Below the pieces are notes generated by a model. It was given only the letters and a program-made list of their open reading frames with translations, had not been told where the DNA came from and made no database searches. Positions 1-8,608 of a DNA stretch of 34,499 nucleotides are shown here, in pieces. The DNA comes from an uncultured Chlorobiaceae bacterium (GTDB taxonomy: Bacteria; Bacteroidota; Chlorobiia; Chlorobiales; Chlorobiaceae): contig CAIJVD010000031.1 of NCBI GenBank assembly GCA_903824045.1, positions 1 to 34,499 on the forward strand. Reading direction: 5' to 3'. The translations under genes were made by a program, and so were the position numbers. The first letter of the stretch is position 1, and every line of letters starts with the position of its first letter.

Positions 1-1098
1 AGCACCACTGTCCGAGCTGTACTGCCAAGTCGCGCCCGATTCCAGACCGGTAACATTCACGGTGCCGTTGCTGGTGATGCCGTCGGAGCTGCTGCTGCCG
101 CTGTCGGTCGCCAAAGCAATTGTCGGAGCCGCTGCGCTCGTATCCAGCACATATGCCTGGCTCAATGTTGTGGCAGTATTTCCCGCTGTATCCCTGACCT
201 CAAGCTTGATAGTGCTGCTGCCGGACAATGTTACGCCACTCCAGGTGATCGTTGTTCCGGAAACTTTAGTTGTTATATCCGTCCAGGTAACCCCGTTATC
301 GATTGAGCCATACAGCTTGTCTGTGCCAAGAGTCGCGCTTAGCGTGCCGGTGATGGTCTGGGAGGCAGTATTCGTAATAAAGTCTGATCCACTTGCCCCT
401 GTATCAGAACTGATATGCACTCCGCTTACTGTCGTCGTCGGCGCCGTCGAGTCAACGGTTATTGCTGAGGCTATCTTTCCGACCACGCTTGTGTTGCCTG
501 CAAGGTCGGTCTGGCGTACATGCACAGTGTTAGCTGAATAATTGCCGGCGGCCAGAGTGAAGCTTGTTCCTGTGCCGGTACTCCAGGAGCTGCCATTGTT
601 GGTGCTGTACTGCCAAGTCGCGCCCGATTCCAGACCGGTAACATTCACGGTGCCGTTGCTGGTGATGCCGTCGGAGCTGCTGCTGCCGCTGTCGGTCGCC
701 AAAGCAATTGTCGGGGTCGCTACCGTCGTGTCGACCAGATAGGAAGGGTTGTCAGCAACAGCACTGAATGTCAGCGTCGCATTAGTATTGGTAGATGTAT
801 CTTTAATTGAAGCGCCACCGGTCAGGCTGACGGAGCCCGCATTGATGCTGATACCGTTCGCATCGGCATCTCCTGAGCTGATGGTGTAGGTGAAAACCAA
901 TGTAGTCCCGGAGGATGCGGTCGCATCATACGTTGCCGTCTTAGACGTCGCGCCGATCAATAAATTCAGTGTTGGCGTCCTTGAGACCGTCACAGCGCTA
1001 CTCATTGTCACTGTTATGGATACGACATCGCCAGTATTCAATGAATTGTTCAGGATTCCAGACGCGCCGGTAATTGCTATTCCAGTTACACTTGCCAT
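1..1098 (-). CDS. Large Ig-like repeat adhesin, type I secretion cargo (partial, N-terminal part)
   Basis: An open frame of 366 codons runs from an ATG at 1098 off the left edge without a stop, so only the N-terminal part is visible. Residues about 1-120 form an SwmB/LapA-type beta-sandwich domain. A Ser/Thr/Gly/Asp-rich repeat follows, then a second type of Ig-like domain, then the first repeat again. I see no cysteine, no N-terminal signal peptide and no RTX nonapeptide in this part. These traits are usual for giant type I-secreted adhesins. An in-frame TAA lies 12 bases before the ATG, so the start cannot lie much further upstream; no Shine-Dalgarno sequence is evident. It is the last visible gene of the secretion operon, 129 bases after the 420-aa repeat protein. 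The adhesin role is inferred from repeats and neighbours. Confidence 0.8.
   Translation of the reverse strand, partial: MASVTGIAITGASGILNNSLNTGDVVSITVTMSSAVTVSRTPTLNLLIGATSKTATYDATASSGTTLVFTYTISSGDADANGISINAGSVSLTGGASIKDTSTNTNATLTFSAVADNPSYLVDTTVATPTIALATDSGSSSSDGITSNGTVNVTGLESGATWQYSTNNGSSWSTGTGTSFTLAAGNYSANTVHVRQTDLAGNTSVVGKIASAITVDSTAPTTTVSGVHISSDTGASGSDFITNTASQTITGTLSATLGTDKLYGSIDNGVTWTDITTKVSGTTITWSGVTLSGSSTIKLEVRDTAGNTATTLSQAYVLDTSAAAPTIALATDSGSSSSDGITSNGTVNVTGLESGATWQYSSDSGA
16..126. repeat. 111-bp perfect direct repeat, copy 1
   Basis: Bases 16-126 are identical to 604-714 (offset 588 bp), by direct comparison. Both copies lie in the same frame of the adhesin gene and encode the start of the same Ig-like repeat (TPTIALATDSGSSSSDG and onward). 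Confidence 0.95.
604..714. repeat. 111-bp perfect direct repeat, copy 2
   Basis: Identical to bases 16-126. Sequence flanking the repeat diverges at once (base 715 differs from base 127), so the identity is confined to this module. Nucleotide-level identity suggests recent duplication or gene conversion between adhesin repeats. Confidence 0.95.
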
Positions 1099-1227: not shown

Positions 1228-2490
1228 TCATAGGTAGAGTATTGCAAGCAGGCCGACTGCGCCCGCGCCAACAAAGATTGCGCCCTCCGGAATCCCTCCG
1301 GAATGGGCGCCGCTCTCGGCATAGGGGTCGACCCCTCCGCCGAATGCAAGGTTCCCGTCGAGGGTTGTTACAAGTCCTGTTGCATTGCTTGTGATGCTCT
1401 CCTGGGTGCCGTGAGCATCGGTGTAGCTGGCATGGACGGAAATCATTTTGCTGATTTGAGCTTCAGTGAGTAAAAGCCTGTCGTCGGTGGCGCCGGTGAT
1501 GGCCGCGCCATCGGCGTACCATTGGTAGTGAATGGTGCCGAGACCGTCGATATCCCCGAGGGTGTTGCTTGCTGACAATGTATGTGCCTGTGCCGGGGTG
1601 CCGGATATTGTTACGTTGCCAGTCGGGGGATCATTGACATTCTCGACGGTAGTTGTTGTGCTGCTGGCGACGCGCTCCTGGGTGCCGTGAGCGTCGGTGT
1701 AGCTGGCATGGACGGTAATGGCTTTGCCGACCTGCGCTTCGGTGAGAACCAGGGTGTCCGCGGAGGCTCCTGCGATTGCCGCTCCATCGGCGTACCAGAG
1801 GTAGCTGATAGCGCCCATGCCGTCCGCATCAGTAATGTCGTTGTGTGCTGTCAGCGTCTCGCCCTGCCTTGCGGTGCCTCTGATCGTTACATCTCCCATT
1901 GGAGGCTCGTTCCCTGGAAGTACGATTGCCGTCGGATTGCTGTTGACGCCCTCTGCCGTTCCGTGAAGGTCAGTGTATGCGGCCCTTACAGTGATGACCT
2001 TCCCCAATTCTGCACTGCTCAGAACTACTGTTTCGGAGGTTGCTCCGGCGCTATCAATGGCAACACCATCGGCATACCACAGGTAGCTTATGCTGCCCAT
2101 GCCGTCCGCATCGGTAATGGTGTTATGTGCTGTCAGCGTTTCGCCCTGCTTGAGCGCGCCGGTGATTGTTACGCTGCCTGCTGGTGCGTCGTTTGTGTTC
2201 GCCACGTGTTCTGTCCCGGTGCTGAGAACGCTTTCAGCCGTACCGCCCAGGTCGGTGTAGCTGCCCCTCACGGTAATGGCCTTGCCGACCTCAGACTCAT
2301 TGAGCATGAGAAAATCCGAGGTTGCCCCGGCTCCGTCAATGGCAACACCGTCTGCATACCACTGGTAGCTGATGGAGTTAATGCCATCGGCGTCTTCCAG
2401 TGTGTTTGCGGCGGTGAGTGTCTGGCCCTGAGCGGGAGTGCCGGTAATCGTCAAGCCGCCGGCAGGATGGGTGTTGGTAGCTGTAAACAT
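1228..2490 (-). CDS. Four-repeat Ig-like protein, probable type I secretion substrate
   Basis: 420 aa, complete. It consists of four tandem Ig-like repeats (about residues 12-101, 105-192, 199-287 and 291-375), each carrying a DADG-like acidic turn, a WYADG core and a later SYTD..GT.E strand. There is no cysteine and no signal peptide; the protein opens directly in a linker-like stretch (ATNTHPAG) resembling the one between repeats 1 and 2. The last 45 residues are not repeat: a Gly/Ser-rich spacer, then a hydrophobic end, GAIFVGAGAVGLLAILYL, with no basic residues after it. The gene lies 50 bases after the TolC-type gene, the last machinery gene, which fits a secreted or surface-retained cargo. 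The only in-frame start after the upstream TAA is the ATG at 2490; no Shine-Dalgarno sequence is clear. Exact function unknown. Confidence 0.85.
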   Translation of the reverse strand: MFTATNTHPAGGLTITGTPAQGQTLTAANTLEDADGINSISYQWYADGVAIDGAGATSDFLMLNESEVGKAITVRGSYTDLGGTAESVLSTGTEHVANTNDAPAGSVTITGALKQGETLTAHNTITDADGMGSISYLWYADGVAIDSAGATSETVVLSSAELGKVITVRAAYTDLHGTAEGVNSNPTAIVLPGNEPPMGDVTIRGTARQGETLTAHNDITDADGMGAISYLWYADGAAIAGASADTLVLTEAQVGKAITVHASYTDAHGTQERVASSTTTTVENVNDPPTGNVTISGTPAQAHTLSASNTLGDIDGLGTIHYQWYADGAAITGATDDRLLLTEAQISKMISVHASYTDAHGTQESITSNATGLVTTLDGNLAFGGGVDPYAESGAHSGGIPEGAIFVGAGAVGLLAILYL

Positions 2491-2540: not shown

Positions 2541-3911
2541 TCATAGCCTCTGGTGAGCCGGGCTGAACCACCCATTGATCTCTTCGATTTCAGTTTCCGA
2601 TAATGTGCCTGCGCTTTGCTTGAGCATGAGGTTGTTGAGAATGTACTGGTATCGAGACTTGGCAAGGTTCCGCCGGCTGGCAAGCAGCTTTTGCTCGGCA
2701 TCGAGTACATCGACATTGCTGCGCAGGCCGGCATCAAACCCTTTCCGGGTTCCTGTCAGGGCGATTTCCTGGGACTTCATGGCCTGGTCATAAGCATTGA
2801 TCTGGGCAATGCCGGTGGTTGTGCTGTTGAAATATTTGCGGACATCCGACACTACCCCGCGTTCCTGGCTGCTACGCAGTTCTCCTGCCTTCAGCAAACG
2901 GGCCTGCGCCTGACGGACAGCGGCACTGACATAGCCGCCGCTGTAGATCGGTACGCTGAGCTGAAGCCCGATTGAGTAGGTGTCGTAGGTGGAGCCGATG
3001 GAGTAGTTGTTTTCACTCTCCGAATAGTTTCTTCCAGCAACGAGCTCGATAGTCGGGTAACGGCCGGCCCGCTGTTTCTGAACATCGTGTTCAGCTATCC
3101 TGATCTCCTCTTTGGCGGCTGTCAGCGAGGGATTGGCGGAAAGGGCCATATCAATCCAAGTATCCACACTGGCAGGAGCGAGCGGCTGCAGTGTCATTTT
3201 TTCCGGGGCAAGCCTGCAGAGCTGCTCGGGATAGACCCCGATCAGCTCCTCAAGCTCACCGCGGGTGTACGCCACATTGCTCGAAATATCGAGCCCCTCG
3301 GCAATGGCCATGTCATGGTTGGCCTGTGACTCCTTAACCTCGGTAATAGTGCCAAGGCCATTTTCAAAACGCTTTTTGGCCTGCTGGAGCTGTTCCCGGG
3401 TGGCCTTGATGTGGGCCTGACTGAACTCCTGATTGTCCTCGGCATAGAGGGTATTGCAGTAGGCCTCGGTTATTCTGACAATGAGGTTCACCGTTTCTTT
3501 GCGAAGATCAGCATCACTTTTTGCAGCCGCTGCCTTGGCCTGTTTATACTCTGCCAGATTGGAAAGATTCAGGATGGACTGGCGTACCGTGATGCCGAAA
3601 TTGAGGGTATTGTAGGACTCAGGAGTGGAGATATACCCATGGAATCCATGCTGAGTCGCGTTGCGCCCCCGTCCTGCCGAGCTTCTGACGATCGGTCGAA
3701 ACTGGGCTCTGGCTTTGCCGATCTCTTCCTGGTTAATCTGATTGTCTGCCTGTGCCGCACGCAGTCGTGCGTCATAGCCGACGGCCCTTTTGTAGGCTGA
3801 GAGCAAATCGAACGTCTCGGCATGCGCCGGGCTTGCAAATACTATTTCTGTTGCAAGCAGTAATCGAATACAGTGCGTTCTCATCTGCCGGATCATTTTC
3901 TGGTTCATCAT
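2541..3911 (-). CDS. TolC-family outer-membrane channel of type I secretion
   Basis: 456 aa, close to the family norm. It begins with a signal peptide (basic MMNQKMIRQMRTHCIR, hydrophobic core, likely cleavage after SPAHA). Two outer-membrane efflux protein (OEP) repeats follow, with the long Gln/Ala/Lys-rich helices typical of the periplasmic tunnel. It should form the trimeric outer-membrane exit duct, engaged by the HlyD-type adaptor. The start is supported by GAGGAG upstream, which overlaps the stop codon of the adaptor gene only 5 bases away, suggesting translational coupling. A second ATG follows immediately (3908) and either could be used. Position between the adaptor and the cargo supports a dedicated channel rather than a general drug-efflux TolC. 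Confidence 0.92.
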   Translation of the reverse strand: MMNQKMIRQMRTHCIRLLLATEIVFASPAHAETFDLLSAYKRAVGYDARLRAAQADNQINQEEIGKARAQFRPIVRSSAGRGRNATQHGFHGYISTPESYNTLNFGITVRQSILNLSNLAEYKQAKAAAAKSDADLRKETVNLIVRITEAYCNTLYAEDNQEFSQAHIKATREQLQQAKKRFENGLGTITEVKESQANHDMAIAEGLDISSNVAYTRGELEELIGVYPEQLCRLAPEKMTLQPLAPASVDTWIDMALSANPSLTAAKEEIRIAEHDVQKQRAGRYPTIELVAGRNYSESENNYSIGSTYDTYSIGLQLSVPIYSGGYVSAAVRQAQARLLKAGELRSSQERGVVSDVRKYFNSTTTGIAQINAYDQAMKSQEIALTGTRKGFDAGLRSNVDVLDAEQKLLASRRNLAKSRYQYILNNLMLKQSAGTLSETEIEEINGWFSPAHQRL

Positions 3912-3916
3912 GGCGC

Positions 3917-5098
3917 CTACTCCTCTTTCATCGAGAGGTGAATCCTCTTGACCAGAGGATCGATCAGATAGGTCAGCAGAGAGCGCTCGCCGGTTTTGAT
4001 GACCACCTGAACCGGCATGCCCGGCTGCATCTGATGGCCTCCAAGCGACTTCATCCCTTCAGGCGTAACGGCAATCCGGGCAAGGTAATAGGACGAGGCC
4101 GGCTGTGCCGGATTGAGCGGTGGATCGGTCATAATGTCGCTTGAGAGCGATTCCACCTTGCCTTGCACGACAAGTTGCGGTGAGTGGGCAAACGAGGAGA
4201 AGCTGATGCTGACCGGAAGGCCCTTTCGAATGCTGTCGATAAGATGCGGCGCGATCTTTCCGTCGATGAGCAGCCCTTCATTGCCAGGTACTATATCCAT
4301 GATTTTCTGACCCGGCTGTATGACCGCTCCGACGGTCTGTACCTGAAGCCCGACAACCTGCCCTGATGCCGGAGAGCGTATCTCCGTATCAGCAAGTTCC
4401 CCGGCAAGTGCCCTTGTTTTTTCTGCGTCGGAATCCACTTCGCGCTGCATCTGCGCAAGCTCGGCCGCGGTATTGCTTCGTATCTCCGAGATTTTGAGTT
4501 CCATCTCCCGCTGCTGGGTTCTGGGCGCGTATCCTTCTCGGACAAGCGCAGCAATCCCCGCCAGCTGTTCTTTGAGAATGCCGAGCGTCATGCGGCGCGA
4601 ACGGAAAAGCTCCTGCTGGTTCTGCATCTGCCGGTGTGCAAGTTCCCTGTCGGGATCGTTCAGGATGTCTCTGTGAAAGGCAATGGATCCGGCACCGCGA
4701 AGTTCGGCAGAGAGCCTGTCGGCAGTAGCCCGTATGCCGAGGTAGTGCTCATGCACCTCATCGTAGCGGGCTTTGGCCGTCTGCTTGTCGAGGGTGACGA
4801 GCACCTCTCCCTGCCGGACCATCTCCCCCTCTTTGACCTGTACCTTTTCGATTCTCCCTCCTCTCAGGTTTTCGACGACCTTGCGTTTGGTGGCAATGCT
4901 GACCACTCCCTGACACGGAACACCTTCGTCAAGCGGCGCGAGTGCCGCCCAGAGCAGGAACCCGCCGAATCCTGCCAGCAGAATCCAGATGCCGAGACGG
5001 ATGGGGGTTCGTGTATCGCGATATGCTGTGCCGGGCGAGCTTACGGGTTGCCAGGGCCTGAAAGGGTTTGTCAGTGTTCGGCTGTTGAGAGTACTCAT
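3917..5098 (-). CDS. HlyD-family membrane fusion protein of type I secretion
   Basis: 393 aa from the ATG at 5098. A cytoplasmic N-terminus of about 33 residues is followed by one membrane helix (about 34-54) and a first biotinyl-lipoyl half (about 60-105, with NLRGGRIEKVQVKEGEMV). A long helical hairpin (about 105-245) and a C-terminal lipoyl/beta-barrel part follow (with RSPASGQVVGL and PGMPVQVVIKTGERS). It bridges the inner-membrane ABC transporter and the TolC-type channel. The frame stays open to 5215, but that would overlap the upstream ATPase gene and add about 39 residues not expected in the family. ATG 5098 leaves 49 bases after the ATPase stop. No strong Shine-Dalgarno sequence is seen. 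Confidence 0.93.
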   Translation of the reverse strand: MSTLNSRTLTNPFRPWQPVSSPGTAYRDTRTPIRLGIWILLAGFGGFLLWAALAPLDEGVPCQGVVSIATKRKVVENLRGGRIEKVQVKEGEMVRQGEVLVTLDKQTAKARYDEVHEHYLGIRATADRLSAELRGAGSIAFHRDILNDPDRELAHRQMQNQQELFRSRRMTLGILKEQLAGIAALVREGYAPRTQQREMELKISEIRSNTAAELAQMQREVDSDAEKTRALAGELADTEIRSPASGQVVGLQVQTVGAVIQPGQKIMDIVPGNEGLLIDGKIAPHLIDSIRKGLPVSISFSSFAHSPQLVVQGKVESLSSDIMTDPPLNPAQPASSYYLARIAVTPEGMKSLGGHQMQPGMPVQVVIKTGERSLLTYLIDPLVKRIHLSMKEE

Positions 5099-5147
5099 GA
5101 TGGTGGCTTGGTAACTGTTAACTAAACGGTACAAAGGTTTTTTTTGG

Positions 5148-6854
5148 TTATGCGGCGGCAGCCTGCTGGCCCGCAGTAACCTCGTATTGGGGTCCGAACC
5201 GGACAATCCGTCCATCCTGCATCACTGCGACCAGATCGGCAATGGCAACGACATCCGGCCGGTGGGTGACAAGAATCACGGTTTTTCCGGCGGCCTTCAG
5301 CTCCGCAACAGCTTTGAGCAGTGAGTGCTCGCCGGCATCATCGAGGTTGGCATTGGGTTCATCGAGAACAATAATGGCAGGGTTGCCGTAGAGCGCACGG
5401 GCAAGGCCAAGCCGCTGCCGCTGTCCGCCCGAAAGCATTCCGCCGGCCTCACCAATCAGGGTGTCGTATCCGTTCGGAAAGCGCAGGATTATCTCGTGGA
5501 TGCCGGTGCGCCGGGCAGCTTCGATCACTTTCATTGAATTCACTTCGGAAAAACGGGCGATGTTTTCAGCAATCGTCCCGTCGAACAACTCGATATCTTG
5601 CGGGAGATAGCCGATATGCGGCCCCAGCTCTTGCCGGTTCCAGCTTTCAACTGGCTCTCCGTCGATGAGTACCCGGCCCTCACGGTTCGGCCAGACTCCA
5701 AGTATGCAGCGAACGAGTGTGGATTTTCCTGAGCCCGACGGGCCAAGAACGACAACCGTTTTGCCGGCAGGAAAGATGGCGTGAAGGTCATTCAGGAGAG
5801 GGGCCGAACGTCCCGGCGCCATTGCCGTGAGCGCGTCGAGCCGGATCTCCCCGATCGGATCCTGACGGGGTCGCTGCGGCCTCTGCACGGGAAATTCGTC
5901 AAGAAGTTTTTCAAGGCGCAGGAATGCCGTCCGGGCCTGGATGAAGGGTTTCCATGTGGCGACGACAAGGTCGAGCGGTGCCAGCGCTTTCGACATCAGC
6001 ACATTGGCCGCGATCATCGAGCCGGCACTCATCTTCCCCTCAATTACCAGCATAGCCCCCGCTCCCAGCGTCAGCGACTGCATGCAGTAGCGCACAAACT
6101 TTGAAAATACCTGATGGCGCTGCTGCCGAGCGCTGGATGATTCGGCTTTGGCCAGCGACGCCTCATGCAGTTTTGACCAGTTCACCCTGAGCCTTTCCTG
6201 CATGCCCATTGCCTGTATCGGCTCGATATTCCTCAGCTTCCCCTGCAGATACCGGTTGCTGTCTTCACTTGCCACAGATGCGCGCTCTATCTCTTTGGTG
6301 CTCATCCGGTGGGTTTGCCGCGTTATGGCAAGCTGAATAAGGGCAAAAAGGATGGAGAGCCAGCCAAGAAACGGGTTGAGCACAAAAATCACCCCGATAT
6401 AGAGAGGCGTCCAGGGGGTGTCGAAAAAAGCAATGATGCCGCTGCCCGTCAGAAACTGCCGGATATTGGTCAGATCCGCGAATGCCTCGCCGGCGTTTTG
6501 ACGGGCCCGTTTCAGGTAGGCCTCGAAACTTGCCGTGAAAACCAGTGCATTGAGATTTTCGTCAAGCCTGACGCCTGCACGGACGAGTATGCGTGAACGG
6601 AGCCACTCAGCAACCGTCATCACTCCATAGAAAAGCACCAGAAAGATCGTTACCATCAGGAGTGTCAGTTCACTCCCGCTTTTCAGGACGCGGCCGTATA
6701 GCTGAAGCATGTAGATGGTTGGCGTCAGCATGAGCACATTGGCGATCATGCTGAAAATCCCTACCCAAAAAAATTCACGGCGAAACAACCAGAGCTGCCG
6801 GGTGAGAATGCTTCGGTCAAAGAGATCAGGTCTCATTGGAGGTTTGTTTTCCAT
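5148..6854 (-). CDS. Type I secretion ABC transporter, PrtD-type (second of pair)
   Basis: 568 aa from the ATG at 6854. The N-terminal half is an ABC transmembrane domain with the PrtD-type opening (LMLTPTIYMLQLYGRVLKSG). The ATPase half has Walker A GPSGSGKST (about residue 370), Q-loop GYLPQDIELFDGTIAENI, signature LSGGQRQRLGLARAL, Walker B IIVLDEPNANLD and switch histidine THRPD. All key residues are intact. No C39 peptidase or C39-like domain precedes the membrane domain, which fits PrtD rather than bacteriocin exporters or HlyB. A GTG at 6899 would extend it by 15 residues into the upstream gene; the ATG, 11 bases after that gene's stop, is preferred. It probably powers cargo export, as a homodimer or paired with the neighbouring ATPase. 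Confidence 0.93.
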   Translation of the reverse strand: MENKPPMRPDLFDRSILTRQLWLFRREFFWVGIFSMIANVLMLTPTIYMLQLYGRVLKSGSELTLLMVTIFLVLFYGVMTVAEWLRSRILVRAGVRLDENLNALVFTASFEAYLKRARQNAGEAFADLTNIRQFLTGSGIIAFFDTPWTPLYIGVIFVLNPFLGWLSILFALIQLAITRQTHRMSTKEIERASVASEDSNRYLQGKLRNIEPIQAMGMQERLRVNWSKLHEASLAKAESSSARQQRHQVFSKFVRYCMQSLTLGAGAMLVIEGKMSAGSMIAANVLMSKALAPLDLVVATWKPFIQARTAFLRLEKLLDEFPVQRPQRPRQDPIGEIRLDALTAMAPGRSAPLLNDLHAIFPAGKTVVVLGPSGSGKSTLVRCILGVWPNREGRVLIDGEPVESWNRQELGPHIGYLPQDIELFDGTIAENIARFSEVNSMKVIEAARRTGIHEIILRFPNGYDTLIGEAGGMLSGGQRQRLGLARALYGNPAIIVLDEPNANLDDAGEHSLLKAVAELKAAGKTVILVTHRPDVVAIADLVAVMQDGRIVRFGPQYEVTAGQQAAAA

Positions 6855-6865
6855 GTTACATGTTG

Positions 6866-8608
6866 TTAATTCAGTGCCCCGCGTCGTCCTGACGGGCACG
6901 AGGAGGCTGTCGGCGGAGACTGCAGGGCTTCAAGCACCTCCCTGCATGTGCCTAACCGCTGGATCTGTCCGTCAACAAGCAGCAGCATGTGCTCGATTGC
7001 GCTGATAATGTTCAGCCGGTGGGTGATGACGATCACCGTCGTACCTCTCTGCCGCAAGAGCTTTACGGCATTGATGAGCGCGGCATCACCGGCTTCGTCG
7101 AGGCTTGCATTCGGCTCATCGAGCACGACAAGCTTCGGCATGCCGTAGAGTGCACGGGCAAGTGCGATGCGCTGGCGTTCGCCACCGGAAAGCAGTGAAC
7201 CCTCTTCGCCCACCCGAGTCTCGTAGCCGTCCGGCAGCTGGGCAATGAAGCTTTCAAGTCCGACCATTTTGCATGCCTCGGAAAGTTTCTGTTTATCAGG
7301 CTCTCCGAACCGTGAGATATTCTCCGCGATGCTTCCTTCGAACAGCTCCACACTCTGCGGCAGATAGCCAACATGCTGGCCAAGTTCATCCTTGTTCCAC
7401 TGATAGAGGTCGTTTCCGTCAAGCCGTACCTTGCCCTGCGCGGCGGGCCATATTCCAGTAAGCAGTCTTGCCAGTGTTGTTTTTCCCGACGCCGATGGTC
7501 CCACGATAGCCAGTGACCCTCCGGGTGCGACCCTGAAGCTTACACCCCTGAGAATCTGTATCTGGCTCCTTGGCGCTCCCGCAATGACCCCCTCAACTGA
7601 AAGCAAGCCTGTCGGGGGCGGCAGCGCCATTTTCTTTTCCGGGAGCGGAAACTCCCTGAGGAGTATATCCAGGCGGCGGAATGCCTCCAGAGCCTCTTCA
7701 GTCTGGCGCCAGTTTCCGATGATCTGCACAAGCGGGGAGAGCACCTTGCCTCCGAGAATCGAGCCGACAATCATGCCGGAACCATGCAGCTCGCCCTTCA
7801 TCGTCAGCCAGCATCCAACACCGAGCAATAGAGAGCTCAACAGGTTTTGCACCAGTTTCGAGAGAACAGCATTGGTTCCGGCGTGATCGGAGGCGGTTGC
7901 CTGTGAGAGAAGAAACTCCTGCTGCAGAGCCGACCATCGCCTATGGATATCCGGTGCCATTCCCATCGACTCGATCACCTGCGCGTTGCGGATGACCTCA
8001 TCGGCATAGCCTTGAGAGATCATTGCACTGCGGTTTGCGGCCAGAAGCGGCAAGCCAATGCGCCGTTCATTGAGAGTTCCGATCCCGAACTGAAGCAGCG
8101 CGCCGGCAACGGCAAACCAGCCCAGCATTGGGTTCATCAGAAAAAGAATCACCAGGACAAGCATGGCGAAAGGGGTATCGAGAATCGCCAGAAAAGCTGG
8201 CGAAGGAAGAAACTCTCGCAGTGTTTTGAGGTCGCGCAGTGCTTGCGGCCCTGCAGCGGGAAAGTTTTTCGTGCGCGCCGAAAAAACCGAGGCAAACAGA
8301 GGGTCACGAACGTTTCTGTCAAGCTCCACTCCGGCATGCTGCATGATCTGATGGCGTACCCACTCGAGAGATTCAAGCAGCATGTATGCGCCAGCGACAG
8401 CTATCGTCAGCATCAGAAGAGTCGTATGGCTCTGGCTGTTTACCACCCGGTCATAGACCTCCATCATGTAGGCGCTTGGCGAAAGGACCAGCACATTGAT
8501 GAAGACCCCGAAAAAGAGCGTCTGATTAATGGCGGGAATCCTTGAGATGAGGGCTTCGCGCAGGGGAGAGTTTTCGTTGAATTTTTTCACGGCTCTCAAT
8601 GGATGCAC
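6866..8608 (-). CDS. Type I secretion ABC transporter, PrtD-type (first of pair)
   Basis: 580 aa, first gene of the secretion operon. PrtD-type membrane domain (LVLSPSAYMMEVYDRVVNSQ) followed by an ATPase domain with Walker A GPSASGKTT, Q-loop GYLPQSVELFEGSIAENI, signature LSGGERQRIALARAL, Walker B LVVLDEPNASLDEAG and THRLNI. No peptidase domain. It resembles its neighbour throughout but is clearly divergent, so the pair is not a recent duplication. The longest start is GTG at 8608. A second GTG at 8590 has a better-placed GAGAG and gives an N-terminus MKKFNENSPLREAL, so the true start is uncertain by six codons. Both proteins keep all catalytic motifs, so neither looks like a degenerate partner. 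Confidence 0.92.
   Translation of the reverse strand: MHPLRAVKKFNENSPLREALISRIPAINQTLFFGVFINVLVLSPSAYMMEVYDRVVNSQSHTTLLMLTIAVAGAYMLLESLEWVRHQIMQHAGVELDRNVRDPLFASVFSARTKNFPAAGPQALRDLKTLREFLPSPAFLAILDTPFAMLVLVILFLMNPMLGWFAVAGALLQFGIGTLNERRIGLPLLAANRSAMISQGYADEVIRNAQVIESMGMAPDIHRRWSALQQEFLLSQATASDHAGTNAVLSKLVQNLLSSLLLGVGCWLTMKGELHGSGMIVGSILGGKVLSPLVQIIGNWRQTEEALEAFRRLDILLREFPLPEKKMALPPPTGLLSVEGVIAGAPRSQIQILRGVSFRVAPGGSLAIVGPSASGKTTLARLLTGIWPAAQGKVRLDGNDLYQWNKDELGQHVGYLPQSVELFEGSIAENISRFGEPDKQKLSEACKMVGLESFIAQLPDGYETRVGEEGSLLSGGERQRIALARALYGMPKLVVLDEPNASLDEAGDAALINAVKLLRQRGTTVIVITHRLNIISAIEHMLLLVDGQIQRLGTCREVLEALQSPPTASSCPSGRRGALN

What the first reader, a model, noticed from the sequence alone, without database searches (positions are those of the whole stretch)
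5148..8608. Two divergent but fully intact PrtD-type ATPases in tandem
Type I systems normally need one ABC protein acting as a homodimer. Here two adjacent ABC genes share the same architecture yet differ along their whole length, and each keeps Walker A, signature, Walker B Glu and switch His. This could be an obligate heterodimer or two exporters with different cargo sharing one adaptor and channel, matching the two different cargo proteins downstream.
Basis: partly seen in the sequence, partly recalled or inferred. Interest (0 to 1): 0.55.

Follow-up and report, generated by a model that had tools for sequence, protein, structure and literature searches.

The report
Inseparable twin motors of an exporter
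In green sulfur bacteria and some betaproteobacteria, a protein-exporting machine that normally runs on one type of ATP-driven motor protein always carries two different, anciently separated ones side by side, which most likely work together as one mixed motor.

Summary
Confirmed: window 8608..6866 (A) and 6899..5148 (B), minus strand, are two intact PrtD-type (TIGR01842) ABC exporters, 38% identical, followed by one HlyD and one TolC gene. A and B are two old clades (each 100/100 support), shared by Chlorobiaceae and Betaproteobacteria. In my census 89 of 90 distinct A genes have B directly downstream (one cut by a contig end), and 104 of 106 B genes have A directly upstream (two cut). None of 79 ordinary single PrtD genes has a partner. 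A and B diverge in step (r=0.98), under equal purifying selection, and more tightly with each other than with HlyD or TolC. In Accumulibacter the HlyD has been exchanged for one of the single-motor kind while the duo stayed intact. Both keep complete ATP-site motifs. Best reading: an obligate A:B heterodimer with two active composite ATP sites. 'Two exporters for two cargoes' is not supported: 0 of 45 other pair loci with enough sequence have a cargo-like gene downstream. The closest precedent is the Vibrio MARTX exporter (RtxB/RtxE), which belongs to the HlyB-like group. New variant of a known kind; physical heterodimerisation remains inferred.

The parts
6866..8608 (-). ABC subunit A: PrtD-type permease/ATPase, 580 aa open frame (start codon uncertain); Walker A GPSASGKT, signature LSGGE, Walker B/Glu VVLDE, switch His530
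   Evidence: AF2 model, best PDB match 5L22 PrtD
5148..6899 (-). ABC subunit B: PrtD-type permease/ATPase, 583 aa open frame; true start probably ATG at 6854 or 6836; Walker A GPSGSGKS, signature LSGGQ, Walker B/Glu IVLDE, switch His546
   Evidence: AF2 model, best PDB match 5L22 PrtD
3917..5215 (-). HlyD-family membrane fusion protein (TIGR01843, 279 bits, cut-off 209); likely start ATG at 5098
2541..3911 (-). TolC-family outer membrane channel (TIGR01844, 326 bits, cut-off 225)
1228..2490 (-). 420 aa Ig-like-repeat protein, possible cargo; repeats also found inside giant open frames elsewhere in the genus
   Evidence: export not tested
1..1098 (-). first 366 aa of a repeat protein (Big_13 Ig-like domain) that runs off the contig end; possible giant cargo
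   Evidence: export not tested

Best explanation
A and B are the two halves of one obligate heterodimeric PrtD-type ABC exporter, working with one HlyD adaptor and one TolC channel as a four-component type I secretion system. Shown: two old clades, strictly paired in fixed order, co-diverging, equally constrained, each with complete ATPase motifs. Inferred: they intertwine as A:B, giving two composite ATP sites (Walker A of A with signature of B, and the reverse). Because neither site is degenerate, both probably hydrolyse ATP, unlike heterodimeric exporters such as TmrAB that have one degenerate site. The subunits have different, long-fixed residues, some in motifs that touch the partner in this fold, so the two sites and the two halves of the substrate path are probably not equivalent. 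Cargo is probably the giant Ig-repeat adhesins scattered around these genomes, recognised by an uncleaved C-terminal signal (inferred).
For: Census: A 90 distinct, 89 with B downstream and 1 cut; B 106 distinct, 104 with A upstream and 2 cut; single PrtD 79, none with an ABC neighbour. Search with TIGR01842, not biased to A or B: 43 of 101 genomes exceed the cut-off; 40 have a tandem pair and 3 (G006, G035, G045) are cut by contig ends. 18 of 61 same-genus genomes have no match over the cut-off, so the operon is absent or lost whole, never by halves. Trees: A and B each one clade, 100/100 and SH-aLRT 100. Co-divergence: Mantel r=0.955, 0 of 2000 permutations; 88 pairs, r=0.981 with median identity 0.545 and 0.560. 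Partial A-B given HlyD and TolC 0.887 against partial B-HlyD given A and TolC 0.269, 63 loci. HlyD exchanged with the duo kept in Accumulibacter. Equal dN/dS. Fixed A/B differences include coupling-helix and D-loop positions. Precedent: MARTX RtxB/RtxE, both needed, heterodimer proposed.
Against: No dimer was modelled or measured; the structure tool folds single chains only. Strict pairing would also follow from two homodimers sharing one envelope complex. A and B are homologues of equal length and like rate, so their identities correlate better than with HlyD for that reason alone. Removing the two Accumulibacter loci shrinks the contrast in the beta set (A-B 0.972 against B-HlyD 0.891). Most loci were fetched with A-type queries, so a lone B could be under-sampled, except. 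Both halves keep everything that a homodimer would need.
Confidence: 0.7

Rival explanations
1. A2 and B2 homodimers sit side by side in one envelope complex. The HlyB/HlyD complex holds several HlyB dimers, so A and B could form distinct dimers with different roles (for example one energising, one gating) and be equally inseparable.
For: The HlyB/HlyD entries 7sgr and 8dck list six HlyB chains each; that these are three dimers is recalled, not read here. All co-inheritance data fit this too.
Against: Fixed A/B differences include the coupling helix and D-loop, which in type IV exporters contact the partner protomer (recalled). RtxB/RtxE was proposed as a heterodimer. None of this excludes the rival.
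Confidence: 0.15
2. Two independent exporters with different cargo that share HlyD and TolC.
For: Two possible cargo genes lie downstream in the window. Both ABC proteins are complete.
Against: 0 of 45 other pair loci with at least 9 kb downstream carry a cargo-like gene downstream. No A or B was seen without the other among 90 and 106 distinct genes, contig ends aside, although 18 of 61 same-genus genomes lack the operon. The single PrtD operons with their own HlyD are a different kind.
Confidence: 0.1
3. A recent or repeated local gene duplication kept by chance or for dosage.
For: Tandem arrangement.
Against: 38% identity between A and B against a median of about 79% within A and within B across the genus. 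Both clades span two phyla with 100/100 support. dN/dS about 0.07 in both.
Confidence: 0.01

Closest known systems
PrtD/AprD-type T1SS ABC exporters (TIGR01842; Aquifex aeolicus PrtD, PDB 5L22)
   Same: Both subunits pass the family cut-off. 5L22 is the best PDB match by sequence and by fold. No N-terminal peptidase-like domain; HlyD and TolC follow in the operon.
   Different: Known members have one ABC gene (homodimer). Here two diverged clades are always paired.
Vibrio MARTX T1SS, RtxB/RtxD/RtxE with TolC
   Same: Two diverged ABC proteins, both needed, heterodimer proposed (PMC3034196 and PMC4316617, passages). RtxB and RtxE form separate clades there too.
   Different: RtxB/RtxE belong to the HlyB-like Group 2; A/B score far below the HlyB cut-off. 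The two Rtx ABC genes flank the HlyD gene, whereas A and B are adjacent. MARTX uses a TolC encoded outside the locus; here TolC is in the operon.
Heterodimeric type IV ABC exporters TM287/288 and TmrAB
   Same: Two different half-transporters; same overall fold.
   Different: TmrAB has a degenerate ATP site (PMC8277102 passages; for TM287/288 recalled). Here both sites have complete motifs, and the genes sit with protein-secretion partners.
Legionella taurinensis putative bacteriocin T1SS with two ABC genes
   Same: Two ABC genes at one locus (PMC6959600, one passage).
   Different: One has a C39 peptidase motif; bacteriocin-type, not PrtD-type.

Membership tests
PrtD-type T1SS ABC exporter (TIGR01842) | Score over the curated cut-off (510 bits) | tested here: met
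   A 621, B 654 bits
PrtD-type T1SS ABC exporter (TIGR01842) | No N-terminal C39 or C39-like domain | tested here: met
   580 and 583 aa; no peptidase domain in Pfam
PrtD-type T1SS ABC exporter (TIGR01842) | Operon with HlyD adaptor and TolC channel | tested here: met
PrtD-type T1SS ABC exporter (TIGR01842) | One ABC gene, acting as a homodimer | tested here: not met
   As to gene number, always two; oligomeric state not testable here. So a sub-variant, not a classic member.
MARTX RtxB/RtxE exporter | Two ABC genes with one HlyD | tested here: met
MARTX RtxB/RtxE exporter | HlyB-like (Group 2) ABC proteins | tested here: not met
   TIGR01846 250 and 260 bits, cut-off 726
MARTX RtxB/RtxE exporter | Both ABC proteins required for secretion | not testable with these tools
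   needs deletions
Heterodimeric ABC exporter with a degenerate site | One non-canonical ATP site | tested here: not met
   Glu, His, Walker A and signature intact in the commonest variants printed for 41 A and 44 B
Heterodimeric ABC exporter | A:B dimer in the membrane | not testable with these tools
   single-chain folding only

The most novel reading that the evidence does not exclude
An unrecognised, ancient class of PrtD-type secretion systems driven by an obligate asymmetric A:B motor with two active but non-equivalent ATP sites. It arose in Betaproteobacteria, was passed as a sealed unit to an ancestor of the green sulfur bacteria, and is used there to export giant adhesins. The two motor genes have never been separated, even when the adaptor was exchanged.
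Probability: 0.55. Interest if true: 0.65.

Novelty: new variant of a known kind. Interest (0 to 1): 0.52.

Why it matters
Why a protein exporter would need two different motor halves is open even for the MARTX system, and that system is tied to toxins of pathogens. Here is an independent solution in phototrophs and soil or water betaproteobacteria, with about 90 natural pairs and a large set of single-motor sisters (79 here) as built-in controls. It makes testable whether asymmetry serves very long cargo, directionality or signal recognition. It also warns that annotation by family model, which puts both genes in the same family, hides a two-gene motor.

Tried and rejected
Recent duplication: rejected. 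Pseudogene in one copy: rejected; one internal stop in A of G040 (L070), a short draft contig, was left as read. Degenerate ATP site: not found. Two-cargo matching: not supported. Whether A and B are sisters (one in-operon duplication) or two PrtD lineages that met: not resolved (p-AU 0.51). Co-variation analysis of contacts: given up, effective number of pairs about 45. The idea that A's coupling-helix change and B's changes at AaPrtD 391/396 are matched losses across the A:B interface could not be tested, as no coordinates are available.

Tandem pairs elsewhere: in 398 genomes sampled from Pseudomonadota only two adjacent pairs (G316, G558) were seen in the printed list, but only three candidates per genome were scored and the list was cut. 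Other phyla were not sampled beyond the 296 genomes. None showed a two-ABC PrtD-type system; most subscription papers and all preprints are missing from that library. The tree held one wrongly extracted row (L085) and is superseded. Rows dropped: six loci with an A identical to another's (L088-L093); the tree used 37 of 71 pairs and 21 single proteins (every third single locus plus six plasmid ones); one search used 14 pairs. Loci L080 and L081 were fetched as possible neighbours of the window and were not used.

Full report
WHAT IS THERE. The window is contig C31 of genome G000; the relatives with the closest genes are named Chlorobium, Chlorobaculum or Chlorobiaceae in public records. On the minus strand it carries, in order, A (8608..6866), B (6899..5148), HlyD (5215..3917), TolC (3911..2541), a 420 aa Ig-like-repeat protein (2490..1228), and the start of a larger repeat protein cut by the contig end (1098..1). 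A and B both pass the PrtD family cut-off and fall well below those of the HlyB and LssB families. They are 38% identical over 532 ungapped positions. All ATPase motifs are present in both. AF2 models of the single chains (mean pLDDT 82.7 and 82.2) have PrtD, 5L22, as best match.

THE PAIR IS OLD AND FIXED. With the TIGR01842 profile, which favours neither A nor B, 43 of 101 genomes searched have a match over the cut-off, all of them in the window's genus. From and the fetched regions, 40 have a tandem pair; the other three (G006, G035, G045) are cut at contig ends. The window's genome has two pairs (window, and C10 = L044). All 41 typed A loci of the genus are followed by B, then HlyD and TolC where the contig reaches; L070 ends after B. 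In a sample of 296 genomes of the phylum, A occurs only in one family, in two genera; the one match outside it, G245, is a single-ABC type.

A scan of the genome collection with the A profile returned 80 loci. Typing of their genes split them cleanly. One set, from Chlorobiaceae, Burkholderiales, Accumulibacter and the Azonexus/Azoarcus/Zoogloeaceae group, has A then B then HlyD (and TolC where the contig reaches). The other set has one ABC gene, about equally distant from A and B. One A-type locus, L120, stops at its contig end. In a sample of 300 genomes of the order of G316 (a Burkholderiales member) at least 10 have the pair: of the 30 loci inspected, 10 were A followed by B and 20 were singles. 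Over everything fetched up to then, with genes typed by three profiles, 90 distinct A genes have B next in 89 cases and a contig end in one; 106 distinct B genes have A before them in 104 and a contig end in two; 79 single PrtD genes have no ABC neighbour (downstream 78 none, 1 cut; upstream 75 none, 4 cut). Caveats: duplicates were removed by a sequence stretch, and most loci were fetched through A-type queries.

TREES. In a 97-row tree A (37 rows) and B (37 rows) are each one clade, SH-aLRT 100. In a 49-row careful tree both have 100/100 and are single clades in 100% of 200 bootstrap trees. Whether A and B are each other's sisters is not resolved (p-AU 0.51). In one search (the one ABC tree drawn in full, superseded because of one row) the Chlorobiaceae rows lie among the betaproteobacterial rows in both clades, which suggests transfer from Betaproteobacteria to an ancestor of Chlorobiaceae; I rate that as likely, not shown.

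CO-DIVERGENCE AND ITS LIMITS. A and B path lengths correlate at r=0.955 over 37 pairs (0 of 2000 permutations) and 0.963 over 28 betaproteobacterial pairs. Identities over 88 pairs correlate at 0.981, with nearly equal medians. Over 63 loci with all four genes, the partial correlation of A with B given HlyD and TolC is 0.887; that of B with HlyD, its other direct neighbour on the DNA, given A and TolC is 0.269. In the beta set of 22 the figures are 0.942 and 0.217. Against this: A and B are homologues of like length, so they correlate more easily; and without the two Accumulibacter loci the raw contrast falls to 0.972 against 0.891. The HlyD tree shows why: Accumulibacter's pair carries an HlyD that lies among those of single-ABC systems (96*), and one single-ABC locus (L149) lies beside the pair type. 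So adaptors have been exchanged while the duo stayed whole. dN/dS is 0.071 for A (47 comparisons) and 0.066 for B (48) among close relatives.

WHAT DIFFERS BETWEEN A AND B. Over 92 A, 90 B and 70 single proteins, 18 positions are fixed differently in A and B by the thresholds used. In Aquifex numbering, A departs from the residue shared by B and the singles at positions 45, 144, 205 (coupling helix 2), 249 and 498 (D-loop), among others; B departs at 278, 391 and 396, among others. The basic gate R307 is kept in all 92 A and 70 single proteins and in 81 of 90 B. That coupling helix and D-loop touch the partner in this fold is recalled knowledge. The pattern fits an asymmetric dimer but does not prove it.

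CARGO. The two repeat proteins downstream in the window are plausible cargo: they have Ig-like repeats and are low in Lys, Arg and Cys. The 420 aa protein's repeats recur, often inside giant open frames, in 16 of 61 genomes searched. But by the same composition test 0 of 45 other pair loci with at least 9 kb downstream have a cargo-like frame downstream on the same strand, and 7 have one upstream. The number of motors is therefore not explained by the number of neighbouring cargoes. Giant adhesin-like proteins are known in green sulfur bacteria (PMC7762298 and PMC4053972, passages only); that they use this exporter is inference.

COMPARISON. A two-ABC type I system is known: the Vibrio MARTX exporter needs RtxB and RtxE, and a heterodimer has been suggested (PMC3034196 and PMC4316617, passages; the 2004 paper they cite was not read). 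Those are Group 2, HlyB-like; A and B are PrtD-like. I saw no report of a paired PrtD-type system in ten searches of an open library (listed in Tried and rejected); that library lacks most subscription papers.

VERDICT. Observation confirmed. Interpretation partly supported: an obligate A:B motor is the most likely reading (0.70), homodimers side by side in one complex the main rival (0.15), two cargo-specific exporters unlikely (0.10). New variant of a known kind, moderate interest.

Noticed in passing
L096:5399-6004, L111:5291-5983, L097, L100, L112, L138 and others: In many betaproteobacterial pair operons a conserved 200-230 aa protein lies directly upstream of A: 30 A loci (duplicates not removed) have it, 80 do not, 46 are cut; 0 of 70 single-PrtD loci with room have it, 3 cut. 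Four members gave no Pfam match at E up to 10. Not found in the Chlorobiaceae loci. A pair-specific accessory protein or regulator.
   Followed up: partly
window 1228-2490 (-): The 420 aa repeat protein ends in a hydrophobic tail (GGIPEGAIFVGAGAVGLLAILYL) like a membrane anchor or sorting tail without the usual basic end; no signal peptide is apparent by eye.
   Followed up: no
L044 (G000 contig C10, 36386-39745): The same genome has a second complete A-B-HlyD-TolC operon with ordinary neighbours and no cargo beside it.
   Followed up: yes
L236 and L111 (both G317): An Acidovorax genome carries two A-B pairs.
   Followed up: no
L118:2153-5836: A DUF5801-repeat protein (1227 aa open frame), likely adhesin cargo, lies directly upstream of A in a Variovorax genome.
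   Followed up: no
L097, L098: Accumulibacter pairs carry an HlyD of the single-ABC kind: a natural adaptor exchange.
   Followed up: partly
L070 (G040:C409): The only typed A gene of the genus with an internal stop codon, on a short contig of a draft genome.
   Followed up: no
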